Made by a program: the position numbers and the translations under genes
NCBI GenBank assembly: GCA_005885515.1
Contig: VAWK01000055.1
Coordinates: 1 to 43,693 of the forward strand
DNA length: 43,693 nucleotides
From: Actinomycetota bacterium
GTDB lineage: Bacteria; Actinomycetota; Thermoleophilia; Solirubrobacterales; Solirubrobacteraceae
Reading direction: 5' to 3'
The notes under the pieces: generated by a model
What the model was told of the DNA's origin: nothing
Database searches by the model: none
The model's input: only the letters and a program-made list of their open reading frames with translations
Shown: positions 1,506-38,538 of the stretch, one piece after another
Layout: each line of letters begins with the position of its first letter
Position numbering within the stretch: position 1 is the stretch's first letter

Positions 1506-3176
1506 TCAGGCCAGGTTGGCCTTGCGCGGGTAGGCGACGCTCGGGTCGGTGAGCACGTTCACGAGCGCCGGGCGGCCGGCCGCGAACGCCCGCTCGAGCG
1601 CCGGACGCAGCTCGGAGGGACGCTGCACCAGCTCGCCGTGGCAGCCGAGCGCCTCGACAACCTCGTCGTAGCGAGTTCCCGAACGCAGCTCCGCGGCCAC
1701 GGAGTAGCCATACAGGAACTCCATCGGATGCTTCTCCAAGCCCCAGATGCCGTTGTTGCCCATGACGCCCACCACGCCGACGCCGTGACGCGCCAGCGTG
1801 TCGAACTCCAGGCCCGAGAAGCCGAACGCGCCGTCGCCCAGCAGCATCACGACCTGTCGCTCAGGGTGCGCGAGCTTTGCCGCCAACGCATATCCCGGGC
1901 CCGTGCCCAGGCAGCCAAACGGACCGGGGTCAAGCCAGCAGCCGGGCTCGTAGCTGTCGATCACGCGGCCCGCATAGGAGACATAGTCGCCGCCGTCGCC
2001 GATCACGATCGCATTGCGCTCGAGCACGGCGCTGAGCTCGGCGTACACGCGCATGGGGTGAAGCGGCGCGCGATCGTCCTGCAGCTCGGGCCGCTCGGCC
2101 TCGCGGCGCTCGCTCTCGACCGCGCGCAGCTCCTCGATCCAGCGCTCGCTTGCAAGCGCCTGCGACCCTGTCTGCGCGCGCACCTGCGCAAGCGTCTGCG
2201 GGAGGGCTCCGTAGCACTCGGCGGCCACCGCCCGCGGATGCGGCCGCTCCGGTTCGGCGGCGTCGGCCACGATGATCTCGGTGTCCTCGCCAAACGCGCC
2301 GCCGAAGCCCAGGCGGAAGTCCATCGGCACACCCGCCACGACGGCCACGTCGGCCCCCTTCAAGGCATGCGAGCGAGCGCGCGAGAAGAACAGCTCGTGG
2401 TCAGCGGGCACGCACCCGCGCGCCAGCCCGTTGAGGAACACGGGGATCCGGAGCGTGTCGGCGAGCTCGAGCAGGGGCTGCTCGGCGCGGTCCCAGTAAA
2501 GGTCGGTGCCAGCCATGATCACCGGCCGCTCGGCGCCCCGCAGAAGCTCGCCCGCGCGTTCGAGCGCGGCGGCGTCCGCACTTGGCCGGCTCGCGCTGCG
2601 GTCCTCGCTTGCGTCCTCCTCGCGGGCCGGCTGCGGCTCGGGCGCCTCCATGAAGACGTAGTCGAGCGGAAAGTCGACAAACGCCGCGCCGCCGTGCGGC
2701 GCCAGTGCCGCGTGAAAGGCCACGTCGACGAGCCCGGGGATCTCCTCGGTGCCGCCCGCCGTGGCGGCGAGCTTGCTCACCGGGCGCACGAACGGCACGT
2801 GGTCGATCTCCTGCAGTGACCCCTGTCCCCAGCGCAGCGCGGGCGCGCGTCCGCCGAGCACCACCATCGGTGAGTGGTTGGCCTGCGCCGAGGCCATCGC
2901 GCTCATCCCGTTCGTCACGCCCGGGCCCGCGGTCAGCGCGCACACGCCGGCCTCGCGCACAACCTTCGCCCATCCCTCGGCCGCGAACGCGGCCGTGGAC
3001 TCGTGCCGCACGTCCACGATCTCGATGCCCTCCGCGCGGCAGCCGTCGTAGATCGAGAAGAGATGCCCGCCCGAGAGCGTGAACAGCCGGCTGACGCCGT
3101 GCGCCCGCAGGCGCCGAGCCACCAGCCGACCGCCGTGGAAGGTGGTGGTCTCCTGAACGCTCTCCGGGCTCGACAT
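1506..3176 (-). CDS. Acetolactate synthase-like ThDP enzyme
   Basis: A 556-residue thiamine-diphosphate enzyme of the acetolactate synthase/2-hydroxyacyl-CoA lyase superfamily. The N-terminal PYR domain has the catalytic glutamate in [13 protein letters not shown] (about residues 58-70) and the conserved TAGPGVTNG. The C-terminal PP domain binds ThDP-Mg through [11 protein letters not shown] and, about 28 residues on, the NNGIWG loop. The order is PYR, central, PP. The N-terminal [15 protein letters not shown] resembles, from memory, mycobacterial IlvG (Rv1820). No regulatory small subunit (ilvN) or ilvC is adjacent, so a role outside branched-chain amino-acid synthesis is possible. The ATG start has only a weak ribosome site, but TAGAGT at 3189-3194 (minus strand) lies 12 nt upstream and would give a very short leader. 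It lies 73 nt downstream of tRNA-Leu on the same strand. Confidence 0.85.
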
Positions 3177-3249
3177 GCCTGAGCAGCGACTCTACCTGTT
3201 CGCGGGCGCCGCCAGGGAGCGGCTTCGGGGCGCTGTCGAGGTCCCTCGA

Positions 3250-3334
3250 TGCCCGGAACGGGATTCGAACCCGCAAGGCCCTTGCGGGCGGCGGATTTTA
3301 AGTCCGCTGACTTTGCCAGTTTGTCTACCCGGGC
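3250..3334 (-). tRNA. tRNA-Leu (UAA)
   Basis: A class II tRNA with a long variable arm. The anticodon loop CTTAAAA gives UAA, which reads the UUA codon that is very rare in a genome this GC-rich. The acceptor stem GCCCGGG pairs with TCCGGGC (one G-U pair) and the discriminator is A. CCA is not encoded. In streptomycetes the equivalent tRNA (bldA) restricts translation of UUA-containing developmental genes; whether that applies here is unknown. Confidence 0.95.
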
Positions 3335-3340
3335 CCCGCG

Positions 3341-3362
3341 ATCCTAGCGCTCTCCAGAGCGC
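3341..3362 (-). promoter_or_regulatory. tRNA-Leu promoter with inverted repeat
   Basis: TAGGAT at 3341-3346 (minus strand) is a good -10 box 6 nt before the tRNA 5' end. Next to it, 3347-3362 is a perfect inverted repeat, GCGCTC-TCCA-GAGCGC, lying in the spacer region of the promoter, where a bound regulator could act. No convincing -35 box is seen at the usual distance. Confidence 0.45.
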
Positions 3363-3404
3363 CAACTTGCCGGCTGTATCCAGAGCGCAACTTGCCTGCT
3401 GTTA
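3353..3404 (+). repeat. 26-bp imperfect tandem repeat
   Basis: Two head-to-tail 26-nt copies differ by one deletion, one substitution and one insertion. Each contains CAACTTGCC and GCTGT. They fill the gap between the tRNA-Leu promoter and the start of the sigma-factor gene. AACTT is also the core of many ECF -35 elements, so the copies may be promoter or operator modules. Confidence 0.7.
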
Positions 3405-3441
3405 CGGTGTCGATGAGACTGAGAGCCGCTTTGGACTGTCT

Positions 3442-5244
3442 GTGGAGGTCTCCGCACTCACGCATGCGAGCACCGCCCCCGGCCTGCGGGGCCCCTCGCC
3501 CCTGCTCCGGCTGCAGTCCGATGAGCGGCTCATCGCGCTGACGCGTCGCGGCCAGCACGCCGCGTTCGAGGCGCTGTGCTCGCGCTATCAGACCCGCCTG
3601 CTGTCGTTCGTGCGGCACATGCTGGGCTCGCGCGAGGACGCCGAGGATGTGCTGCAGGAGGTCTTCGCGGCCGCCTTCAACGCGGTCCTCGCCGACGAGC
3701 GCGAGATCAACGTGCGGCCGTGGCTTTACCGCATCGCCCGCAACCGCTCGCTCAACCACCTGCGCCGCGCCTCGGCGGTGGGCATGGACTCGATGGACGT
3801 CCACTACGCCGACCACGGCCTGTCGACCAGCGACCGCGTACTTCGCCGCGAGAGCTTCCGTGAGCTGCTCGCCGACGTCCGGCGGCTACCCGAGACCCAG
3901 CGCACCGCGTTGCTGCTGCGCGAGATCGACGCGCTCTCATACGAGCAGATCGCGCACGCCATGGACACCACCGTGCCATCGGTCAAGTCGCTGCTCGTGC
4001 GCGCCCGCATCTCGCTCGCCGAGGCCGCCGAGGCGCGCAAGCTCAGCTGCGCCGAGGTGCGCCTGGAGCTTGGCGAAGTCGCCGAGGGGTTGGTCAGGCT
4101 GAGCCCGCTGGCACGCCGGCACGTGCGCGACTGCGACCGCTGCCGCTCGTTCAAGCGCCAGCTGAAGGAGAACAACCACGTGCTCGCGGCCATCCTTCCG
4201 GTGGGCCCGCTGCTGCTGGTCAAGCAGCTGCTGCTCGCCAAGCTCGGCTCCAGCGCTTCCGCCGGCAGCGCGCACGTCGCCTCGGGCGCGAGCGCGACCG
4301 TCGGAGCGGGCGCCGCGGCCGGCGCCGCGGGCGGAGCGGGCAGTGGCGTGTTGACGCTCGGAGGCGGCGCGCTGGCCACCAAAGCCGTCGCAGGGCTAGC
4401 CGCGGCCGCGATCGTGAGCGCCGGCGCGGTTGCCGCAAACCAGACGGCTCCCCGCCACCACCGCACGGCCCATGCGAGGACGGCCTACGCGCCCGCCCAG
4501 CGCGACCCCTACGAACCGGTGCTCGCCGCGCAGCGCGCGCAGCCGCTGAGCGCCAGCGCGGCCAAGCCGTCCGTGATCGCCGCCCACCACGTTCGCCGCC
4601 CCGGGAATGCGGCCAAGCTCACTCCCGGCGGCGACACGTCGCCCACGGTCTCGGTGCCGTCCGCGGCTGCAGCGGTGCGGCCCGCGCCGGCGCTGCTCCC
4701 GCCCGCCAGACCGTCCCCGGAGCCCGCGACGCCGCTCACGCAGCTGACGAGCGAGAGCACCCAGCTGCCCGCAGCGGCCACGGCGGCACCCGAGTCGAGC
4801 CCCGCGGCCGTCACCGCGTCACCAGAATCCACCCCGCCTGCGCAGGCCGGTGCCACGGGCGGAGTCCCCTCGAGCTCCGGACCGCCCCCACCTGCCGCGG
4901 CAGCCGCCAGCCTGGAAGCTGCCGGCGCCAGCGCCGAGCCCGCGAGCGCTAGCTCGGGGCCCACGAGCGCGAGCTCTCCCGCCGCGAGCGCGAGCTCTGC
5001 CAGCGCCGGCCCGAGCCCCGCCGCTGCGGCTGCGCCGGTGTCCTCCCAGACCGCAGCACCCGTGGCACCGTCGGATCCCTCGGTGGAGCCCGCCGCGCCC
5101 GCGCGAGCGAGCGCGGCGCCGACCTCGCCCGACGCCCGCCCGCAGCCCATCGCGGTGCGGCATTCGACAGCTCGACTCAAGAGCACCTCCGGCAGCGCGC
5201 CCTCCCGGCGACGCACGCACCGCTCGCTGCCTAGCCGAAGCTGA
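3442..5244 (+). CDS. ECF sigma factor fused to ZAS anti-sigma domain
   Basis: A 600-residue multidomain regulator. Residues 25-110 form sigma region 2 (SREDAEDVLQEVFAAAF, then WLYRIARN). Residues 137-198 form region 4 with the helix-turn-helix LSYEQIAHAMDTTVPSVKSLL. A zinc anti-sigma (ZAS/zf-HC2) motif follows directly: C203, then H227-x3-C231-x2-C234. Next come a hydrophobic stretch (248-269), a Gly/Ala linker, a likely membrane helix (about 310-333) and about 265 residues rich in Ala, Pro and Ser. The longer frame back to 3175 is rejected because it reads through tRNA-Leu; GTG 3442 is the first in-frame start after it. The ribosome site is weak. Usually sigma and anti-sigma are separate proteins; here one membrane-tethered chain carries both, and the tail may be extracytoplasmic. 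The target regulon is unknown. It ends 14 bp inside the convergent gene. Confidence 0.85.
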   Translation: MEVSALTHASTAPGLRGPSPLLRLQSDERLIALTRRGQHAAFEALCSRYQTRLLSFVRHMLGSREDAEDVLQEVFAAAFNAVLADEREINVRPWLYRIARNRSLNHLRRASAVGMDSMDVHYADHGLSTSDRVLRRESFRELLADVRRLPETQRTALLLREIDALSYEQIAHAMDTTVPSVKSLLVRARISLAEAAEARKLSCAEVRLELGEVAEGLVRLSPLARRHVRDCDRCRSFKRQLKENNHVLAAILPVGPLLLVKQLLLAKLGSSASAGSAHVASGASATVGAGAAAGAAGGAGSGVLTLGGGALATKAVAGLAAAAIVSAGAVAANQTAPRHHRTAHARTAYAPAQRDPYEPVLAAQRAQPLSASAAKPSVIAAHHVRRPGNAAKLTPGGDTSPTVSVPSAAAAVRPAPALLPPARPSPEPATPLTQLTSESTQLPAAATAAPESSPAAVTASPESTPPAQAGATGGVPSSSGPPPPAAAAASLEAAGASAEPASASSGPTSASSPAASASSASAGPSPAAAAAPVSSQTAAPVAPSDPSVEPAAPARASAAPTSPDARPQPIAVRHSTARLKSTSGSAPSRRRTHRSLPSRS

Positions 5245-5881
5245 AGGTCTTCAGCGGCCGCAGCAGCACCCCCGCGGTGGCGACTTCCAGCGGCGATGTG
5301 ATCTGGGCGTTTGCCGTGGGCGAGGTCAGCATCACTATGTCCACGCCCTCGCGCACACCCGGCCGTTCGGGCAGCAGCAGCACGTCTCGTCCCCACATCG
5401 TGCGGCCTTCGATCTGCGCCGTGTACAGCACGTGGTAGCCGGGAACGGTGTTCACGCGCGTCTTGCCCTCGCCGCGCAGCACGAAGCCCGCGTCGCGGCG
5501 GGCCAGCTTGCGGATGTAGCCCGCCGCGTACAGCGGCAGCTCGCCCGAGAGGCTGCCGGAGTAGGGCGGCAGCGTGAGCGGCCCCACGGCGAATGAATCC
5601 TCGAGCGTGCCGTCCGCGCGGTGGCGCTGCACCTTGACGTAGCCGCCGGGGTCGGGCCGCACGCGATACAGGCTGCGGTAGCGGAAGCTGAACGGCACCC
5701 TGCCGCGATGTGAGTAGGTGGCGTTCTCGAGCGTCAGCACGGCCCCCACGATCGCCGCGATCACGCCGGCGCAGGCGGCGATCACCCCCGCCCGGGCGAG
5801 CGCCGAGGCGGCGCGCCAGCGCGGCGACAGCAGGCGCCCCAGGGTGGGGCCATACTCCGGCTTGATCGGAAGCGCGGCCAC
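5231..5881 (-). CDS. Membrane-anchored protein, unknown function
   Basis: A 216-residue protein I do not recognise. It has a short cytoplasmic N-terminus, one membrane helix (about residues 30-52, Ala/Val/Ile-rich) and an exterior part of about 160 residues that looks beta-rich, with no cysteines and no enzyme motif. The GTG at 5881 lies 13 nt after the Lrp-like gene; a TTG at 5911 would overlap that gene by 17 nt. It probably shares a transcript with the upstream Lrp-like gene. The 3' ends of this gene and the sigma factor overlap by 14 bp, which may cause mutual interference. Confidence 0.7.
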   Translation of the reverse strand: MAALPIKPEYGPTLGRLLSPRWRAASALARAGVIAACAGVIAAIVGAVLTLENATYSHRGRVPFSFRYRSLYRVRPDPGGYVKVQRHRADGTLEDSFAVGPLTLPPYSGSLSGELPLYAAGYIRKLARRDAGFVLRGEGKTRVNTVPGYHVLYTAQIEGRTMWGRDVLLLPERPGVREGVDIVMLTSPTANAQITSPLEVATAGVLLRPLKTFSFG

Positions 5882-5894
5882 GGTGCTGGCCGGA

Positions 5895-6176
5895 TCACTC
5901 GCCGATCGCAAACAGCGCTTCCAGGTCGTGGCGCGAGTAAGCGGCGAACGCGACCATGGTCTGGGTCCGGATCACCCCGGACAGCACGGTGATCGCGCCC
6001 GTGACCACGTCGGCGAGCTGCTCGTGGTCGGGCACCCGCACGATCGCCACGAAGTCCCACTCCCCGGTGACCGAATACGCCTCGGCCACCCCCTCGATGT
6101 CGGCAAGCTCGCCCCCAAGCTTCGAGAGCGCGTCACGCTCGGCCTCGATCAGCACGACCGCGTTGGTCATCGTCAT
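5895..6176 (-). CDS. Stand-alone Lrp/AsnC ligand-binding domain
   Basis: A 93-residue protein equal to the C-terminal RAM (regulation of amino-acid metabolism) domain of Lrp/AsnC regulators, with the typical GEWDFVAIVRVPD strand. The DNA-binding helix-turn-helix is absent, and the frame contains no upstream sequence encoding one. Such single-domain proteins usually assemble into dimers or octamers that bind amino acids and may modulate full-length partners. The start is ATG 6176 (ATG 6170 is an alternative), with TATGAT 8 nt upstream. Confidence 0.85.
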   Translation of the reverse strand: MTMTNAVVLIEAERDALSKLGGELADIEGVAEAYSVTGEWDFVAIVRVPDHEQLADVVTGAITVLSGVIRTQTMVAFAAYSRHDLEALFAIGE

Positions 6177-6260: not shown

Positions 6261-7067
6261 CTACAGCCCGTCGGAGCCGGCGCGCTGCAGCCCGAGTCCC
6301 AGCAACAGCCCGATCGCCCCGCCGGTGACGCCCGCCAGCCAGCTCGGCTCGGGGCGGGGCAGCGCGAACGGGACGGCCAGCAGCACCGCCGCCAGCGCAC
6401 CCGCGCCCAGGAGATCGCCCTCGTAGTAGGCACCGGCGCGGGCCGCCCGCAGATCGGGCGCCGCCCACGCGGCGAGCAGGGCGAGCGCGGCGGCATTGCC
6501 GCCGATCACGATCGGCTGCGAGTAGACCGCGCTGGCGGCAAGGGCGCCCGCGACGCCGGCACCGAGGAACAGCGCAAGCACCGCGGCGGGGCCCAGCCGG
6601 CGCTCCAGCAGCCAGCCGAAGATCGCGACCGCAAGCAGGGCCACGAACGCATACAGGCCGTTGCTGTAGGTGAACTGGCTGCTCAGCAGCTTCCACCAGT
6701 CGCCGTGCAGCGGTCCCGCGACGACGAGCTTGTCCAGCCCCACAAAGCCCCCACGCCAGGCGATCCACACGCCACAGCTCAGTGTGACCAGGCTGATCGT
6801 CGCGTACGGCGGTGAGAACGCGCGGGCCTCTCCCCAGCGCGACAAGCGACGGCGCGAGAACGCCAGCGATCGCCTGCGACTGCGCAGCGGTAGCCAGCGC
6901 AGGCGCCGCAGCACACCGCGCGGCGAGCGATTGAGGGCATGCTCGCGCGGCAGCTTCGGGGCCCGCCGGCGCAGCCGGTGGCCGCAGTACGGGCACTCGG
7001 TGATGTACGGGCTAACCTCCGATCCGCACTGCTTGCAAACCACGAACAGATCCGCGCCCGAGGACAT
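6261..7067 (-). CDS. Zinc-ribbon rhomboid pseudoprotease
   Basis: A 268-residue membrane protein. A zinc ribbon (C11, C14, C25, C28) is followed by an Arg-rich linker and a rhomboid-type bundle of about six or seven helices, recognisable by WWKLLSSQF, the ERRLG motif after the second helix, and GVAGALAAS. The rhomboid GxSG motif reads G-G-N191-A, so the nucleophilic serine is Asn. The catalytic His of the last helix (AHxGG) is V247, and the accessory His of the HxxxN motif is Tyr134. It should therefore not cleave substrates and may act as an inactive rhomboid that binds membrane proteins. The frame is open to 7259 but ATG 7067 puts the zinc ribbon at the N-terminus and has TAGAAT 8 nt upstream. 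It is divergent from the aldolase. Confidence 0.8.
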   Translation of the reverse strand: MSSGADLFVVCKQCGSEVSPYITECPYCGHRLRRRAPKLPREHALNRSPRGVLRRLRWLPLRSRRRSLAFSRRRLSRWGEARAFSPPYATISLVTLSCGVWIAWRGGFVGLDKLVVAGPLHGDWWKLLSSQFTYSNGLYAFVALLAVAIFGWLLERRLGPAAVLALFLGAGVAGALAASAVYSQPIVIGGNAAALALLAAWAAPDLRAARAGAYYEGDLLGAGALAAVLLAVPFALPRPEPSWLAGVTGGAIGLLLGLGLQRAGSDGL

Positions 7068-7075
7068 GTCGATCC

Positions 7076-7120
7076 ATTCTAAGGACCTCCCGACCTCGCC
7101 CCGCACGGCTCTGGTAATAC
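7076..7120. promoter_or_regulatory. Divergent leaderless promoters
   Basis: The 60-bp gap between the rhomboid and aldolase genes holds two -10 elements. TAGAAT on the minus strand (7076-7081) is 8 nt before ATG 7067. TAATAC on the plus strand (7115-7120), with an extended TGG just before it, is 7 nt before ATG 7128. Both predict transcripts that start at or within two bases of the start codon. Confidence 0.55.
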
Positions 7121-7127
7121 TCAGGCG

Positions 7128-8057
7128 ATGACGCTTGGCTACGACGGCAAGCTCTACATCCTCGCCTTCGACCACCGCGGCTCGTTTCAGAAGAAGTTCT
7201 TCGGTATCGATGGCGAGCCCGATCCGGAGCAGACGGCGATCATCGCCGACGCCAAGCACCTGATCTTCGAGGGCCTGCTGCGGGCGGTTGCGGGCGGTGC
7301 CGAGCCCGCCGCGGCCGGGGTGCTGGTCGATGAGCAGTTCGGCTCAGACGTGCCCCAGCAGGCGCGCGAAACGGGGCTGAGGCTCGCGATGCCGGCGGAG
7401 CGCTCCGGACAGAACGTGTTCGACTTCCAGTACGCGGATGACTTCCCCGCACACATCGAGCGCTTCGATCCCGACTTCACCAAGGTGCTCGTACGCTTCA
7501 ACCCCGACGGCGACGCCGACGCCAACCGGGTGCAGCTCGACCGGCTCAAGCGCCTGAGCGACTGGCTGAAGGCGCACGAGCGCAAGTTCCTGTTCGAGCT
7601 GCTCGTGCCCGCCGAGAGCGACCAGCTTCAGTCCGTGGCAGGTGACCCCGAGCGCTACGACGCCGAGCTGCGCCCGCAGCTGATGCTGCGCGCGATCGCC
7701 GCGATCCAGGCGGCGGGCATCGAGGTGGACGTGTGGAAGATCGAGGGCGTCGAGCAACGCTCGGACTGCGAGGCGCTGGTAGCCCAGGCCCGCTCCGGGG
7801 GGCGTGGCGGGGTCGCCTGCGTGGTGCTCGGGCGCGGCGCGGACGAGAACAAGGTCGATCACTGGCTCGCGCAGGCGGCGCCCGTGGAGGGCTTCGTCGG
7901 CTTCGCGATCGGCCGCTCCATCTGGTGGGATCCGCTGAAAGCCTACGTGGACGGGAAGATCGAGCGGGCCGCGGGGGCGCGCAAGATCGCGGAGAACTAC
8001 CTGCGCTTCGTCAAGGTCTACGAAGCGGCCGAGGGCAAGGCTCCGGTCGCCACCTAG
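7128..8057 (+). CDS. DUF2090 family aldolase-like protein
   Basis: A 309-residue TIM-barrel protein of the DUF2090 family, the domain fused to the kinase IolC in some bacteria and assigned there as 5-dehydro-2-deoxyphosphogluconate aldolase of inositol breakdown. The barrel start YILAFDHRGSFQKKFFG, VLVDEQFG and VWKIEG are visible. Here the domain stands alone and no other iol gene is present, so the substrate is uncertain; a general sugar-phosphate aldolase role is inference. The ATG start has no Shine-Dalgarno but has an extended -10 box 7 nt upstream, so the mRNA is probably leaderless. The next gene follows after 24 nt. Confidence 0.8.
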   Translation: MTLGYDGKLYILAFDHRGSFQKKFFGIDGEPDPEQTAIIADAKHLIFEGLLRAVAGGAEPAAAGVLVDEQFGSDVPQQARETGLRLAMPAERSGQNVFDFQYADDFPAHIERFDPDFTKVLVRFNPDGDADANRVQLDRLKRLSDWLKAHERKFLFELLVPAESDQLQSVAGDPERYDAELRPQLMLRAIAAIQAAGIEVDVWKIEGVEQRSDCEALVAQARSGGRGGVACVVLGRGADENKVDHWLAQAAPVEGFVGFAIGRSIWWDPLKAYVDGKIERAAGARKIAENYLRFVKVYEAAEGKAPVAT

Positions 8058-35632: not shown

Positions 35633-37339
35633 ATGGCCACCGTCTCGCAGGTCCAGCGCGAGCATGGCGCGCCGTGGCAGACGCACACGGTGTTCAACCA
35701 GCCGCCCCCGCTGGAGCACCTCGACGTGTACACCACCAACCTGCCTCTGGTCGAGGCGGTCGAGCGCGAGGGCGCCGGGTGGGTGCACGAGCGGGCCGCC
35801 GAGCTGGGGCGGTTCGTGGGCGGCGCGCCGCAGCAGTCCTGGGGCCGGCTGGCAAACGAGAACCGGCCGGTGCTGCGAACGCACGACCGCTACGGCAACC
35901 GCATCGACGAGGTGGAGTTTCACCCTGCGTGGCATCAGCTGATGCAGATGGGCGTCGAGAACGGGTTGCACTCGCTGCCCTGGACGAGCGATGAGCCGTG
36001 CGCGCACACCGCGCGCGCGGCGCTGTACATGACCGCGATGCAGGCCGAGGCTGGGTTCTGCTGCCCGATCACGATGACCTTCGCGGTCGTGCCTGCGCTG
36101 CGCGCGCAGCCGGAGCTGGCGGCGGAGTGGGAGCCGCGCCTGATGGCACGCACGTACGACCCCCGTTTGTTGCCGCCCGGCGAGAAGGCGAGCGCGATCG
36201 CGGGCATGGCGATGACCGAGAAGCAGGGCGGCTCGGACGTGCGCGCGAACACCACCGTCGCCACGCCGCTGGGCGCCGGCGGACCCGGCGGCGAGTACGA
36301 GATCACCGGTCACAAGTGGTTCTGCTCGGCGCCGATGTCGGACATCTTCCTCGTGCTGGCCCAGACCGAGGAGGGGCTGTCCTGCTTTTTGCTGCCGCGC
36401 ATCCTGCGCGACGGCAGCCGCAACGCCTTTCACATCCAGCGCCTGAAGGACAAGCTCGGCAACCGCTCCAACGCCTCCAGCGAGCTCGAGCTGCACGGCG
36501 CCTGGGCTCAGATGGTGGGCGAGCCCGGCAGGGGCGTGCCCACGATCATCGAGATGGTCGGCCACACGCGGCTCGACTGCGTGATCGGGTCGGCCGCCGG
36601 CATGCGCGCGGGACTGGTCTCGGCGATCCACCACGCCGCCCACCGGCGCACGTTTGGCAAGCGCCTGATCGAGCAGCCGCTGATGCGCAACGTGCTCGCC
36701 GACCTGTGCGTTGAGTCCGAGGCGACGACCGCGCTCGCGATGCGCCTGGCGCGGGCCTACGACGAGGCAGACGCCGACGCGCGCGCGGGTGAGAACGGAA
36801 CCGATGCCCAGCTGTTCAAGCGCCTGGCCACGGCCGCTGGCAAGTACTGGACGTGCAAGCGCGCGCCCGGCCACGCGTGCGAGGCTCTGGAGTGCTTGGG
36901 CGGCAACGGCTACGTCGAGGAGTCGGGCATGCCGCGCCTGTACCGCGAGGCGCCACTGGCCTCGATCTGGGAGGGGTCCGGAAACGTGATGAGCCTCGAC
37001 GTGCTGCGCGCGCTGGCGCGCTCGCCACGCTCGCTGGAGGTGTTCCTGGCCGAGGTCGAACAGGCCCGTGGCGCCGACGCGCGCTTGGACGCGCGGGTGG
37101 AGGCGCTCAAGCGGCAGTTCTCGGACGCCGGCACGCTCGAGACCCGGGCACGCCGTGTCGTGGAAGCGATGGCGCTGTGCCTGCAGGGCTCGCTGCTCGT
37201 GCGCAACGGCGCGCCCGCCGTCGCCGACGCGTTCTGCGCCTCGCGCCTGGGCGCGGACGGCGGCCTCGAGTATGGAACGCTGCCGGCGGGCACCGACTTC
37301 GAGGCGATCCTCGAGCGCGGTCGCCCCCAGGCCGGCTGA
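35633..37339 (+). CDS. aidB: AidB-like acyl-CoA dehydrogenase
   Basis: A 568-residue flavoprotein of the AidB branch of acyl-CoA dehydrogenases. It matches E. coli AidB across its length: WQTHTVFNQPPPLEHLDVY at the N-terminus, FHPAWHQLM, CPITMTFAVVPAL, GMAMTEKQGGSDVRANTT (FAD region), LKDKLGNRSNASSELEL, and the C-terminal LYREAPLASIWEGSGNVM. In E. coli AidB belongs to the alkylation (Ada) response and binds DNA; its enzymatic substrate is unclear. No ada or alkA gene is nearby. The ATG start has no clear ribosome site. A 53-nt gap separates it from the protease gene. Confidence 0.92.
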   Translation: MATVSQVQREHGAPWQTHTVFNQPPPLEHLDVYTTNLPLVEAVEREGAGWVHERAAELGRFVGGAPQQSWGRLANENRPVLRTHDRYGNRIDEVEFHPAWHQLMQMGVENGLHSLPWTSDEPCAHTARAALYMTAMQAEAGFCCPITMTFAVVPALRAQPELAAEWEPRLMARTYDPRLLPPGEKASAIAGMAMTEKQGGSDVRANTTVATPLGAGGPGGEYEITGHKWFCSAPMSDIFLVLAQTEEGLSCFLLPRILRDGSRNAFHIQRLKDKLGNRSNASSELELHGAWAQMVGEPGRGVPTIIEMVGHTRLDCVIGSAAGMRAGLVSAIHHAAHRRTFGKRLIEQPLMRNVLADLCVESEATTALAMRLARAYDEADADARAGENGTDAQLFKRLATAAGKYWTCKRAPGHACEALECLGGNGYVEESGMPRLYREAPLASIWEGSGNVMSLDVLRALARSPRSLEVFLAEVEQARGADARLDARVEALKRQFSDAGTLETRARRVVEAMALCLQGSLLVRNGAPAVADAFCASRLGADGGLEYGTLPAGTDFEAILERGRPQAG

Positions 37340-37380
37340 GCGCCGGCGCCCGCCGGTCCCGTGCCGGCGCCTGTCGGCCA

Positions 37381-37386
37381 TACCAT
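37381..37386 (+). promoter_or_regulatory. -10 box for leaderless M50 protease gene
   Basis: TACCAT fits TANNNT and ends exactly 6 nt before ATG 37393, so the transcript should begin at the start codon. GAGGG lies in those six bases but is too close to act as a ribosome site. Confidence 0.5.
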
Positions 37387-37392
37387 GAGGGC

Positions 37393-38538
37393 ATGGCGCC
37401 GCGCACCAATTACCAGCTCGCCCGCATCTTCGGGATCAGGATCGGCGTGGGGATCAGCTTCTTTGTCGTGCTGTTCGTCTTCATCTTCGCGGTCACCGGT
37501 CCGTTCCACGAAATGCTCGGCGGCTCGCGCACGACCGCCTACCTCGTCGCGGTGGCGTCGGTGCTGTCGTTCTTCGCCTCGTTGATCATGCACGAGCTCG
37601 GTCATGCGCTGGTGGCCCGCCGCAACGGCCTGCCGGTCGCCGGCATCGACCTGTGGGCGTTCGGCGGGATGACGCGCAGCGGCGAGCCGCAGACGCCCGG
37701 CGTGGAGTTCCGCGTCGCGGTCGCCGGCCCGCTCGTGACCCTGGCGGTGATCGTGCTGTGCACGCTGGCGGGCCAGCTGGCGACCAACAGCAGCCATTTC
37801 TTTGAAGCCGCGCTCGCCACCGGAGGAGTCCGGGCAAGCCCCGCGCTGGTGTGGCTGAGCTGGGTGGCGACGATCAACGCGCTGGTGCTGGTCTTCAACC
37901 TGATCCCAGCCTTCCCGCTGGACGGCGGCAAGATCGCGCGCGCCGCCATCTGGTGGCGCACGGGCGATCGCTACCGCGCGACCAACGTGTCCGGGCGCAT
38001 GGGGCAGGGCTTCGCCCTGCTCCTCGGGTTGTTCGGCCTGTGGGGGCTGGCGAGCGGCAGCTCCGGCGGGCTTCTGGCGATGCTGCTGGCCTTCTTCCTC
38101 TATCAGTCGGCGAGCGCCGCGGTCGTGCAGGCGTCGCTGAACCGGCGCATCGACAACCTGACCGTCGCCGACGTGATGGATCGCGAGCCGGTCACGATCC
38201 CCTCGTCCTCGACCCTGCTGGAGGCCCACGAGCAGTTCTTCATGCGCTATCGCTGGCAGTGGTTCGCCGTCGTGGACCCGGCCCGACACTTCCTCGGGAT
38301 CGTGCGCGGCCAACGCGTGGACGCCGAGATCGCGGCCGGTCGTCCCGCGCTCGCGGTGGCGGAAGTGCTCGACGATGAGGAGCCCGTCCGCGTCGATGAG
38401 GAGCAGCCGCTGGGCTCGCTGCTGGGCGCCGAGGGCCTGCCGCGTCTGGGCGCGATGGTGGCAGTCGACGACGAGGGGGTGCTCAAGGGCGTGGTCACGC
38501 TCGGGCAGGTGCGCCGGGCCTTGCGCCTGGCGACGTAG
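37393..38538 (+). CDS. Site-2 protease (M50) with CBS pair
   Basis: A 381-residue intramembrane zinc metalloprotease. HELGH at residues 67-71 gives the two zinc histidines and the glutamate, and NLIPAFPLDGGK (169-180) gives the third ligand. About six membrane helices span residues 18-225. The C-terminal part (about 243-381) is a pair of CBS domains (LTVADVMDREPVTIPSSSTL and a second copy ending VVTLGQVRRAL), which typically bind adenine nucleotides and gate activity. Family members cleave anti-sigma factors or membrane regulators. A substrate is not identifiable; the membrane-tethered sigma fusion at 3442 is a speculative candidate. The long frame starting at 36853 is an overlap artefact. 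Confidence 0.93.
   Translation: MAPRTNYQLARIFGIRIGVGISFFVVLFVFIFAVTGPFHEMLGGSRTTAYLVAVASVLSFFASLIMHELGHALVARRNGLPVAGIDLWAFGGMTRSGEPQTPGVEFRVAVAGPLVTLAVIVLCTLAGQLATNSSHFFEAALATGGVRASPALVWLSWVATINALVLVFNLIPAFPLDGGKIARAAIWWRTGDRYRATNVSGRMGQGFALLLGLFGLWGLASGSSGGLLAMLLAFFLYQSASAAVVQASLNRRIDNLTVADVMDREPVTIPSSSTLLEAHEQFFMRYRWQWFAVVDPARHFLGIVRGQRVDAEIAAGRPALAVAEVLDDEEPVRVDEEQPLGSLLGAEGLPRLGAMVAVDDEGVLKGVVTLGQVRRALRLAT

What the first reader, a model, noticed from the sequence alone, without database searches (positions are those of the whole stretch)
3442..5244. Sigma factor, zinc anti-sigma and membrane anchor in one chain
The gene reads continuously from ECF sigma regions 2 and 4 into a ZAS motif (C203, H227-x3-C231-x2-C234), one or two hydrophobic segments, and about 265 residues of Ala/Pro/Ser sequence. 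ZAS anti-sigmas normally are separate proteins that bind the sigma in the cytoplasm. Here inhibition would be within one molecule tied to the membrane. The tail may act outside the cell as a wall-spanning sensor. Release would require proteolysis or a conformational change. Some actinobacterial ECF groups with fused C-terminal extensions have been described, but the long unstructured tail and its role look open.
Basis: partly seen in the sequence, partly recalled or inferred. Interest (0 to 1): 0.75.

Follow-up and report, generated by a model that had tools for sequence, protein, structure and literature searches.

The report
Membrane-tethered sigma factor with built-in inhibitor
One gene in an actinobacterium joins a gene-switching protein (sigma factor), its own zinc-type inhibitor, a membrane anchor and a long tail into a single chain; this build is known from other actinobacteria, but here it is an old, conserved family with a promoter element found almost only in front of itself.

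Summary
Confirmed: window 3442-5244 (+) is one 600-aa frame with ECF sigma regions 2 and 4, a zinc anti-sigma (ZAS) motif C203 / H227-x3-C231-x2-C234, a hydrophobic (membrane) segment and a 267-aa A/P/S tail. It is no frameshift: 92 of 93 distinct ortholog-grade proteins keep the ZAS motif in frame; the exception is cut at a contig end.

Of 14 standalone sigma genes from outside the order, 13 have a ZAS motif 11-126 nt after their end, so the fusion corresponds to a joined sigma/anti-sigma pair. Chosen fused and split forms separate on one supported branch. The first hydrophobic segment is probably anti-sigma helix 4. Two of ten fused relatives scanned end in an SH3 domain, fitting an outside tail.

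Added here: a conserved ECF-type element at 3386-3411 (AAC-N17-GT). In 41 genomes its strict form lies almost only before this gene, which predicts self-activation; no other targets were found.

The build is that of ECF48/52/53 (SCO4117), already in print, minus the carbohydrate-binding module. Best mechanism: an autoinhibited, membrane-held sigma factor freed by regulated proteolysis. Inhibition and release are inferred, not shown.

The parts
3386..3411 (+). Predicted ECF-type autoregulatory promoter: -35 CGCAACT (3386-3392), -10 GTGTC (3407-3411), AAC-N17-GTC spacing
   Evidence: Phylogenetic footprint: CGNAAC-N15-GTGTY in 40 of 93 upstreams at exactly this gap, 0-1 of 93 at each other gap from 8 to 23; strict motif in 41 genomes almost only here
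3442..5244 (+). Whole gene: ECF sigma - ZAS - membrane helix - low-complexity tail, 600 aa
3580..3774 (+). Sigma-70 region 2 (residues 47-111)
   Evidence: Pfam PF04542, E 3.1e-16
3877..4011 (+). Sigma-70 region 4 (residues 146-190)
   Evidence: Pfam PF08281, E 1.6e-12
4048..4143 (+). ZAS zinc-ligand stretch, residues 203-234 (C203, H227, C231, C234)
   Evidence: four ligands invariant in 47 rows; motif in 92 of 93
4201..4251 (+). Hydrophobic helix after a PVGP break (residues 254-270), read as anti-sigma helix 4 rather than a membrane span
   Evidence: AlphaFold2 helix 253-269 in model numbering, pLDDT about 75, separated from helix 231-250 by an invariant Pro; inference from the published helix-4 role
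4252..4365 (+). Gly/Ala/Ser-rich linker (residues 271-308)
4366..4440 (+). Predicted membrane helix (residues 309-333)
   Evidence: hydropathy peak; a segment over the threshold in 67 of 70 complete longer orthologs; helix 309-334 in the AF2 model but mostly at pLDDT below 50
4441..5241 (+). Low-complexity A/P/S tail (residues 334-600), predicted extracytoplasmic
   Evidence: composition and lack of conservation; 2 of 10 fused paralogs scanned carry a terminal SH3_3 domain here

Best explanation
The gene encodes a one-chain, membrane-tethered ECF sigma factor that carries its own zinc-type (class I) anti-sigma domain. At rest the ZAS helices (helix 1 joined directly to the end of region 4; helix 4 = residues 254-270) are proposed to hold regions 4 and 2 away from RNA polymerase, while one membrane helix (309-333) keeps the molecule at the membrane and the Ala/Pro/Ser tail lies outside, in or near the wall. 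A signal acting on the tail leads to cutting outside and then within the membrane (site-2-type protease) and removal of the ZAS part, releasing sigma. The freed sigma reads an AAC-N17-GT promoter and activates its own gene, amplifying the signal. Shown: architecture, conservation, start site, correspondence to split gene pairs, conserved upstream element. Inferred: zinc binding, inhibition, topology, autoregulation. Assumed by analogy with ECF52/53 and IutY: proteolytic release.
For: Domains in one frame. ZAS ligands in 92 of 93 orthologs, invariant in 47 rows. 13 of 14 standalone sigma genes outside the order (loci) have a ZAS motif 11-126 nt after their end; in L200, L204 and L208 the two frames are seen as separate ORFs with a stop between, and the ZAS frame of L208 is zf-HC2 at 2.4e-13. 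Fused relatives L202 and L211 reach zf-HC2 above its cut-off inside the fused chain (2 of 10 scanned). AF2 gives the ZAS stretch as helices 202-213, 221-229, 231-250 and 253-269, pLDDT 88-92 up to residue 240 and 75-79 after it. Tail outside: C-terminal SH3_3 in L215 (at the cut-off) and L230 (above it), 2 of 10 fused paralogs scanned. Own-promoter element: 40 of 93 at exact spacing, shuffled mean 0.025 loci; 22 of 24 strict sites in 41 genomes lie directly before the gene, and one of the other two is a contig-end overlap of the same site. Three open frames with M50 (site-2-type) protease matches exist in this genome, one inside the window.
Against: AF2 does not dock the ZAS on the sigma domains with confidence (pTM 0.45), and Foldseek superpositions on two-domain ECF sigma chains, those of anti-sigma complexes included, are poor (rmsd mostly 13-20). 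The ZAS profile finds no ZAS protein in the PDB by sequence and its match to a known ZAS is weak (probability 22%). K/R counts around the membrane helix do not follow the positive-inside rule clearly (0.89 before, 1.67 after; D/E 0.0 before, 1.54 after). No regulon beyond the own promoter was detected: 30 other loose sites against 38 of the reversed control. The strict motif was drawn from these same upstreams, so hits there are by construction; 13 of the 35 genomes with an ortholog-grade gene have no site at one mismatch. Three of 73 uncut frames lack the membrane part. M50 proteases occur in all 14 control genomes, so they say little.
Confidence: 0.68

Rival explanations
1. Self-inhibited sigma with release by a conformational or zinc/redox change, without cutting: the sigma part works while still tied to the membrane.
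For: All four putative zinc ligands are invariant, as expected if zinc loss were the switch; ECF41/ECF238 sigma factors are activated by conformational change (section 3.5 of PMC8999054).
Against: Long tails and SH3-bearing paralogs point to an external signal; about half of membrane-bound class I anti-sigmas carry the zinc motif, which may be only structural (passages of PMC7406223).
Confidence: 0.17
2. The ZAS and membrane parts no longer inhibit; they only place an always-active sigma factor at the membrane, or stabilise it.
For: No confidently docked sigma-ZAS complex in the model; no regulon found.
Against: Invariant zinc ligands and helix-break proline; a ZAS motif beside 13 of 14 split relatives.
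Confidence: 0.1
3. Two membrane helices (246-268 and 309-333), so that the tail is back in the cytoplasm.
For: Both segments exceed the hydropathy threshold in the window; segment 1 in 53 and segment 2 in 67 of 70 longer complete orthologs.
Against: Segment 1 follows the ZAS bundle directly, carries a PVGP break and Lys residues, and sits where anti-sigma helix 4 belongs; SH3 domains on paralog tails are typical of the outside (general knowledge).
Confidence: 0.12
4. Sequencing or annotation artefact: frameshift between sigma and ZAS, or two separate products.
For: In one relative (G005) the frame is broken, but inside region 4. Start-like triplets occur before the ZAS: ATG at 29 residues before C203 in 91 of 92 (a conserved Met, which has one codon) and GTG at 17 before in 53 of 92.
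Against: 92 of 93 orthologs read through. Within the 12 residues before C203 the only start triplet seen in more than 3 of 92 is an ATG in 5 of 92.
Confidence: 0.02

Closest known systems
ECF52, SCO4117 of Streptomyces coelicolor (passages of PMC5826349; PMC8999054 section 3.5)
   Same: ECF sigma, then zinc finger, membrane region and Pro-rich extension in one chain; proposed autoregulation and proteolytic release
   Different: Here no carbohydrate-binding family was matched in 22 members scanned; upstream element AAC-N17-GT, not the reported CSGYN-17-SRHA; a neighbourhood partly conserved within the order
ECF48 and ECF53 (PMC8999054 section 3.5)
   Same: C-terminal extension of up to 400 residues with a ZAS-like zinc finger and one or two membrane helices
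   Different: Group membership could not be tested: no reference sequences or group models on hand
IutY of Pseudomonas putida, ECF243 (PMC8999054 section 3.5)
   Same: Sigma fused to its membrane anti-sigma; per that 2022 review the only such fusion with experimentally characterised proteolytic activation
   Different: Iron-starvation cell-surface signalling type; no ZAS described for it in the section read
Adjacent ECF sigma and ZAS genes (for example L200, L204, L208; L003 with L187 in the same genome)
   Same: Same parts in the same order
   Different: A stop codon separates them; the chosen split rows lie on the other side of a 99/95-supported branch

Membership tests
ECF sigma factors | Sigma regions 2 and 4 only | tested here: met
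   Sigma70_r2 and r4_2 in the window and in 22 of 22 members scanned
ECF sigma factors | Recognises an AAC-type -35 / GT-type -10 promoter | tested here: inconclusive
   Conserved AAC-N17-GT element upstream of the gene itself; that this sigma reads it was not tested
ZAS / class I anti-sigma domain | Hx3Cx2C with an N-terminal Cys/His ligand | tested here: met
   92 of 93 orthologs; invariant in 47 rows
ZAS / class I anti-sigma domain | Pfam zf-HC2 match | tested here: not met
   0 of 22 members at E 0.05. Of 10 more distant fused relatives, 2 pass the cut-off (L202, L211) and 2 are weak (L217, L218)
ZAS / class I anti-sigma domain | Three-helix bundle plus helix 4 | tested here: inconclusive
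   Four helices in the AF2 model; no ZAS chain among the 50 of 337 Foldseek rows shown
ECF52 | Sigma - zinc finger - membrane helix - Pro-rich extension in one chain | tested here: met
   membrane helix by hydropathy only, zinc finger by motif
ECF52 | Carbohydrate-binding module on the extension | tested here: not met
   No such Pfam family among those matched at E 0.05 in 22 members; the only non-sigma match was Collagen in 1 of 22, E 0.00028
ECF52 / ECF53 / ECF48 | Phylogenetic placement in the group | not testable with these tools
   No named reference of these groups or group HMM on hand; the classification paper (PMC7826278) is not held
IutY-type fusions | Proteolytic release of the sigma part | not testable with these tools
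   Needs experiment

The most novel reading that the evidence does not exclude
Thermoleophilia carry an old radiation of single-protein transmembrane transcription receptors. One ancestral joining of a sigma/ZAS pair would have given up to eight fused copies in one genome (G056), whose intracellular parts are conserved and whose outside tails were exchanged (plain low-complexity or SH3-tipped). The copy studied here is the order's conserved core member, its strict promoter existing almost nowhere but in front of itself, so that the molecule acts as a self-amplifying switch.
Probability: 0.3. Interest if true: 0.62.

Novelty: new variant of a known kind. Interest (0 to 1): 0.45.

Why it matters
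It extends the few described sigma/anti-sigma fusions (ECF48/52/53, IutY) to a family found widely in Solirubrobacterales, including cultured Solirubrobacter, Conexibacter and Patulibacter strains. It supplies a defined promoter element with which inhibition, release and signal can be tested directly, and a tractable case of how a two-protein stress pathway collapses into one molecule.

Tried and rejected
Frameshift or two products: rejected, because 92 of 93 orthologs read through. Longer start at 3175: rejected, because it overlaps the tRNA-Leu gene and the conserved promoter, and orthologs start at 3442. Housekeeping promoter: the consensus scan found none in 3170-5400, but its shuffles also gave 0.0, so it is uninformative. 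The better argument is that the TGYTA block is lost in family f4 (L031, L032, L033, L035) while an -AC-N17-GT core is kept. Regulon search with the loose half-motif: 42 sites in 41 genomes, 12 of them the own promoter (one a contig-end duplicate), 30 others against 38 of the reversed pattern, so no excess (own-promoter sites assigned by me from coordinates). Own genome at up to 3 mismatches: 6 sites, only this one with fewer than 3, against 9 reversed-control sites. Neighbouring rhomboid as release protease: a homolog lies in 29 of 37 loci with enough flank, but the position of the catalytic Ser is Asn in 28 of 34 rows and Ser in 1, and the stretch that I read as TMH6 holds a His in 3 of 34 (L121, L130, L153). 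The GxSG and TMH6-His motifs are recalled. It is probably not an active protease. Plasmid collection as a source of named fused relatives: 482 records, none covering 80% of the query. PDB search with the ZAS profile: three designed proteins at E 0.5 or worse. Further sigma loci that I fetched: of 8 distinct new ones, mostly longer ORFs, 1 (L232) has a ZAS motif downstream and 7 (L233-L239) have none, two of these (L237, L239) being standalone-size ORFs; in the own genome L003 has one and L004-L008 have none. Paralog promoters: AAC-N17-GT in 7 of 26 stretches searched, one of them inside the gene, about 3 expected by my own estimate, so not used as evidence. Papers: searches (any two of ECF sigma factor, Thermoleophilia, zf-HC2; Solirubrobacter, sigma factor, anti-sigma) found none. 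I saw section 3.5, tables and legends of PMC8999054, found passages only of PMC5826349, PMC7406223, PMC8103513 and PMC10766802, and listings for the rest.

Full report
1. What is there. Window 3442-5244 (+) encodes 600 aa in one frame. Pfam places ECF sigma region 2 at 47-111 and region 4 at 146-190. Hydropathy shows two segments, 246-268 and 309-333, and a 267-residue tail follows. The longer ORF from 3175 overlaps a tRNA-Leu gene (3250-3334 -) and the conserved promoter. 79 of 93 orthologs have a start codon at exactly the aligned residue 1, so 3442 is taken as the start.

2. It is real and conserved. A match at E <= 1e-20 was found in 38 of 41 related genomes, the window's own included. By my reading of that table 35 of the 41 hold an ortholog-grade match (E below 1e-80), three only weaker ones and three none. 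Named loci include Solirubrobacter, Conexibacter, Patulibacter and Paraconexibacter strains and many MAGs, most of them titled Solirubrobacterales or one of its families. 104 loci gave 93 distinct proteins. 92 carry C-x20-26-HxxxCxxC in the same frame, and the exception is cut at a contig end. In a 47-row alignment the four ligands are invariant, as are a Pro between the last two ZAS helices and a Lys near the start of the membrane segment. Of 73 frames not cut by a contig end, 70 go on to a long C-terminal part and 3 (L027, L164, L166) end soon after the ZAS. The tail is unconserved and rich in A, P, T and S, with practically no Cys.

3. The neighbourhood looks inherited, not mobile. A tRNA-Leu(UAA) lies within about 260 nt upstream of the start in 19 of 26 named loci scanned. 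By tblastn anywhere in the locus, a Ppx/GppA gene is found in 35 of 45 loci with enough left flank and a rhomboid homolog in 29 of 37 with enough right flank; the acetolactate-synthase-like gene (22 of 45), the AsnC-like gene (20 of 37) and the convergent neighbour (17 of 37) are kept less often. In the window the next gene downstream is convergent.

4. Where the fusion comes from. A profile of the sigma+ZAS part was run over 198 genomes of the phylum. 14 of the 25 loci it returned were standalone sigma ORFs of about 190-215 aa, all from outside the order. 13 of these 14 have a ZAS motif 11-126 nt after the ORF's end. For L200, L204 and L208 the separate ZAS frame was read, with the sigma stop codon in the same frame, and that of L208 is a clear zf-HC2 (2.4e-13). 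Of 8 further sigma loci, fetched mostly for their long frames, only 1 has such a motif; in the own genome L003 has one and L004-L008 have none. In a tree of sigma domains the 15 rows labelled split and the 38 fused rows are separated by one branch with 99/95 support. The rows were chosen by me and the root is only a midpoint, so one ancient fusion is the simplest reading, not a proof. All 26 fused relatives picked, mostly for long coverage, have the ZAS motif in the same ORF. One relative, G056 (97% complete), has nine profile matches, of which eight, the ortholog included, were seen to be fused. The window's own genome holds at least one fused paralog (L002) and one split pair (L003 with L187).

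5. ZAS identity. Neither the window protein nor the 21 other members scanned reach zf-HC2 in Pfam. A profile comparison with L208's ZAS aligns the ligands in register but is weak (probability 22%). Of 10 more distant fused relatives, 2 pass the zf-HC2 cut-off inside the fused chain (L202, 5.7e-7; L211, 1.3e-4, barely), 2 are weak and 6 show none. AlphaFold2 on residues 2-272 gives helices 202-213, 221-229, 231-250 and 253-269 in model numbering, mean pLDDT 84.5, but pTM only 0.45. The domains are believable; the way they pack is not known.

6. Topology. In class I anti-sigmas, helices 1-3 form a bundle, helix 1 binds region 4, and helix 4 after a flexible linker binds region 2 (passages of PMC7406223). 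The first hydrophobic segment here starts right after the bundle, is broken by PVGP and contains Lys, so I read it as helix 4. That leaves one membrane helix (309-333) and the tail outside. Support comes from two fused paralogs whose tails end in an SH3_3 domain (L215, at the cut-off; L230, above it; 2 of 10 scanned), a type usually found outside the membrane (general knowledge). The K/R counts around the helix are not clear support, and no dedicated topology predictor was available.

7. The promoter. Upstream stretches of many orthologs share CGCAACT-N7-TGYTANSGTGT. The core CGNAAC-N15-GTGTY begins 26-110 nt before the start, median 57. It occurs in 40 of 93 at this gap and in 0-1 of 93 at each other gap from 8 to 23; shuffled upstreams give 0.025 loci on average. 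A looser form, CGNNAC-N17-KTY, is in 79 of 93, against 2-33 of 93 at other gaps from 12 to 23. In 41 genomes, with one mismatch allowed, there are 24 sites in 22 genomes. 22 sites lie directly in front of the fused gene, one is a 127-bp contig-end overlap of the same site and one is elsewhere; the reversed pattern gives none. The pattern was drawn from these upstreams, so the telling part is its near absence elsewhere; 13 of the 35 genomes with an ortholog-grade gene have no site this strict. The spacing equals that of known ECF promoters (recalled, not from a call). Self-activation is therefore a good prediction, while no further targets were found.

8. Mechanism. The most likely working is self-inhibition in one membrane-held molecule, release by cutting, and self-amplification. 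Proteolysis is proposed for ECF48/52/53 and shown for IutY according to the review PMC8999054. For SCO4117 a sigma-only version still modulated development and activated its own gene's expression (passages of PMC5826349). Nothing in the sequence here proves proteolysis. M50 proteases exist in the genome, one within the window frame 36853-38538, but they rang in all 14 control genomes.

9. Known or new. The build is that of ECF52 without its carbohydrate-binding module (tested, not met), so it is not filed as ECF52; it works like it. ECF48/53 membership could not be tested, and it may already sit in a published ECF group. I call it a new variant of a known kind. What is added here is the widely conserved ortholog with a promoter element of its own, the comparison with split pairs, the helix-4 reading of the first hydrophobic segment, and SH3-tipped paralogs.

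Noticed in passing
window 6261-7259 (-): Zinc-ribbon plus rhomboid-fold membrane protein often kept near the sigma gene (29 of 37 loci); the catalytic Ser position is Asn in 28 of 34 rows and a TMH6-region His is seen in only 3 of 34: probably a conserved pseudo-rhomboid.
   Followed up: partly
window 3363-3377 and 3388-3402: CAACTTGCC-GCTGT occurs twice, 25 bases apart; by eye only the second copy is conserved in orthologs. Possibly a local duplication of the -35 region.
   Followed up: partly
L215 and L230 (C-terminal 50 residues): Fused sigma/ZAS paralogs whose tail ends in a bacterial SH3_3 domain: possible wall-sensing versions.
   Followed up: partly
window 36853-38538 (+): Frame with M50 site-2-type protease matches in the same window.
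   Followed up: no
L027 (same contig as L111), L164, L166: Three frames not cut by a contig end stop soon after the ZAS, without membrane segment or tail; L027 ends in a different, charged stretch close to a contig end, so artefact is possible.
   Followed up: partly
window 5231-5911 (-): Convergent neighbour with an N-terminal hydrophobic segment by eye and no Pfam family; a homolog is found in 17 of 37 loci with enough flank.
   Followed up: no
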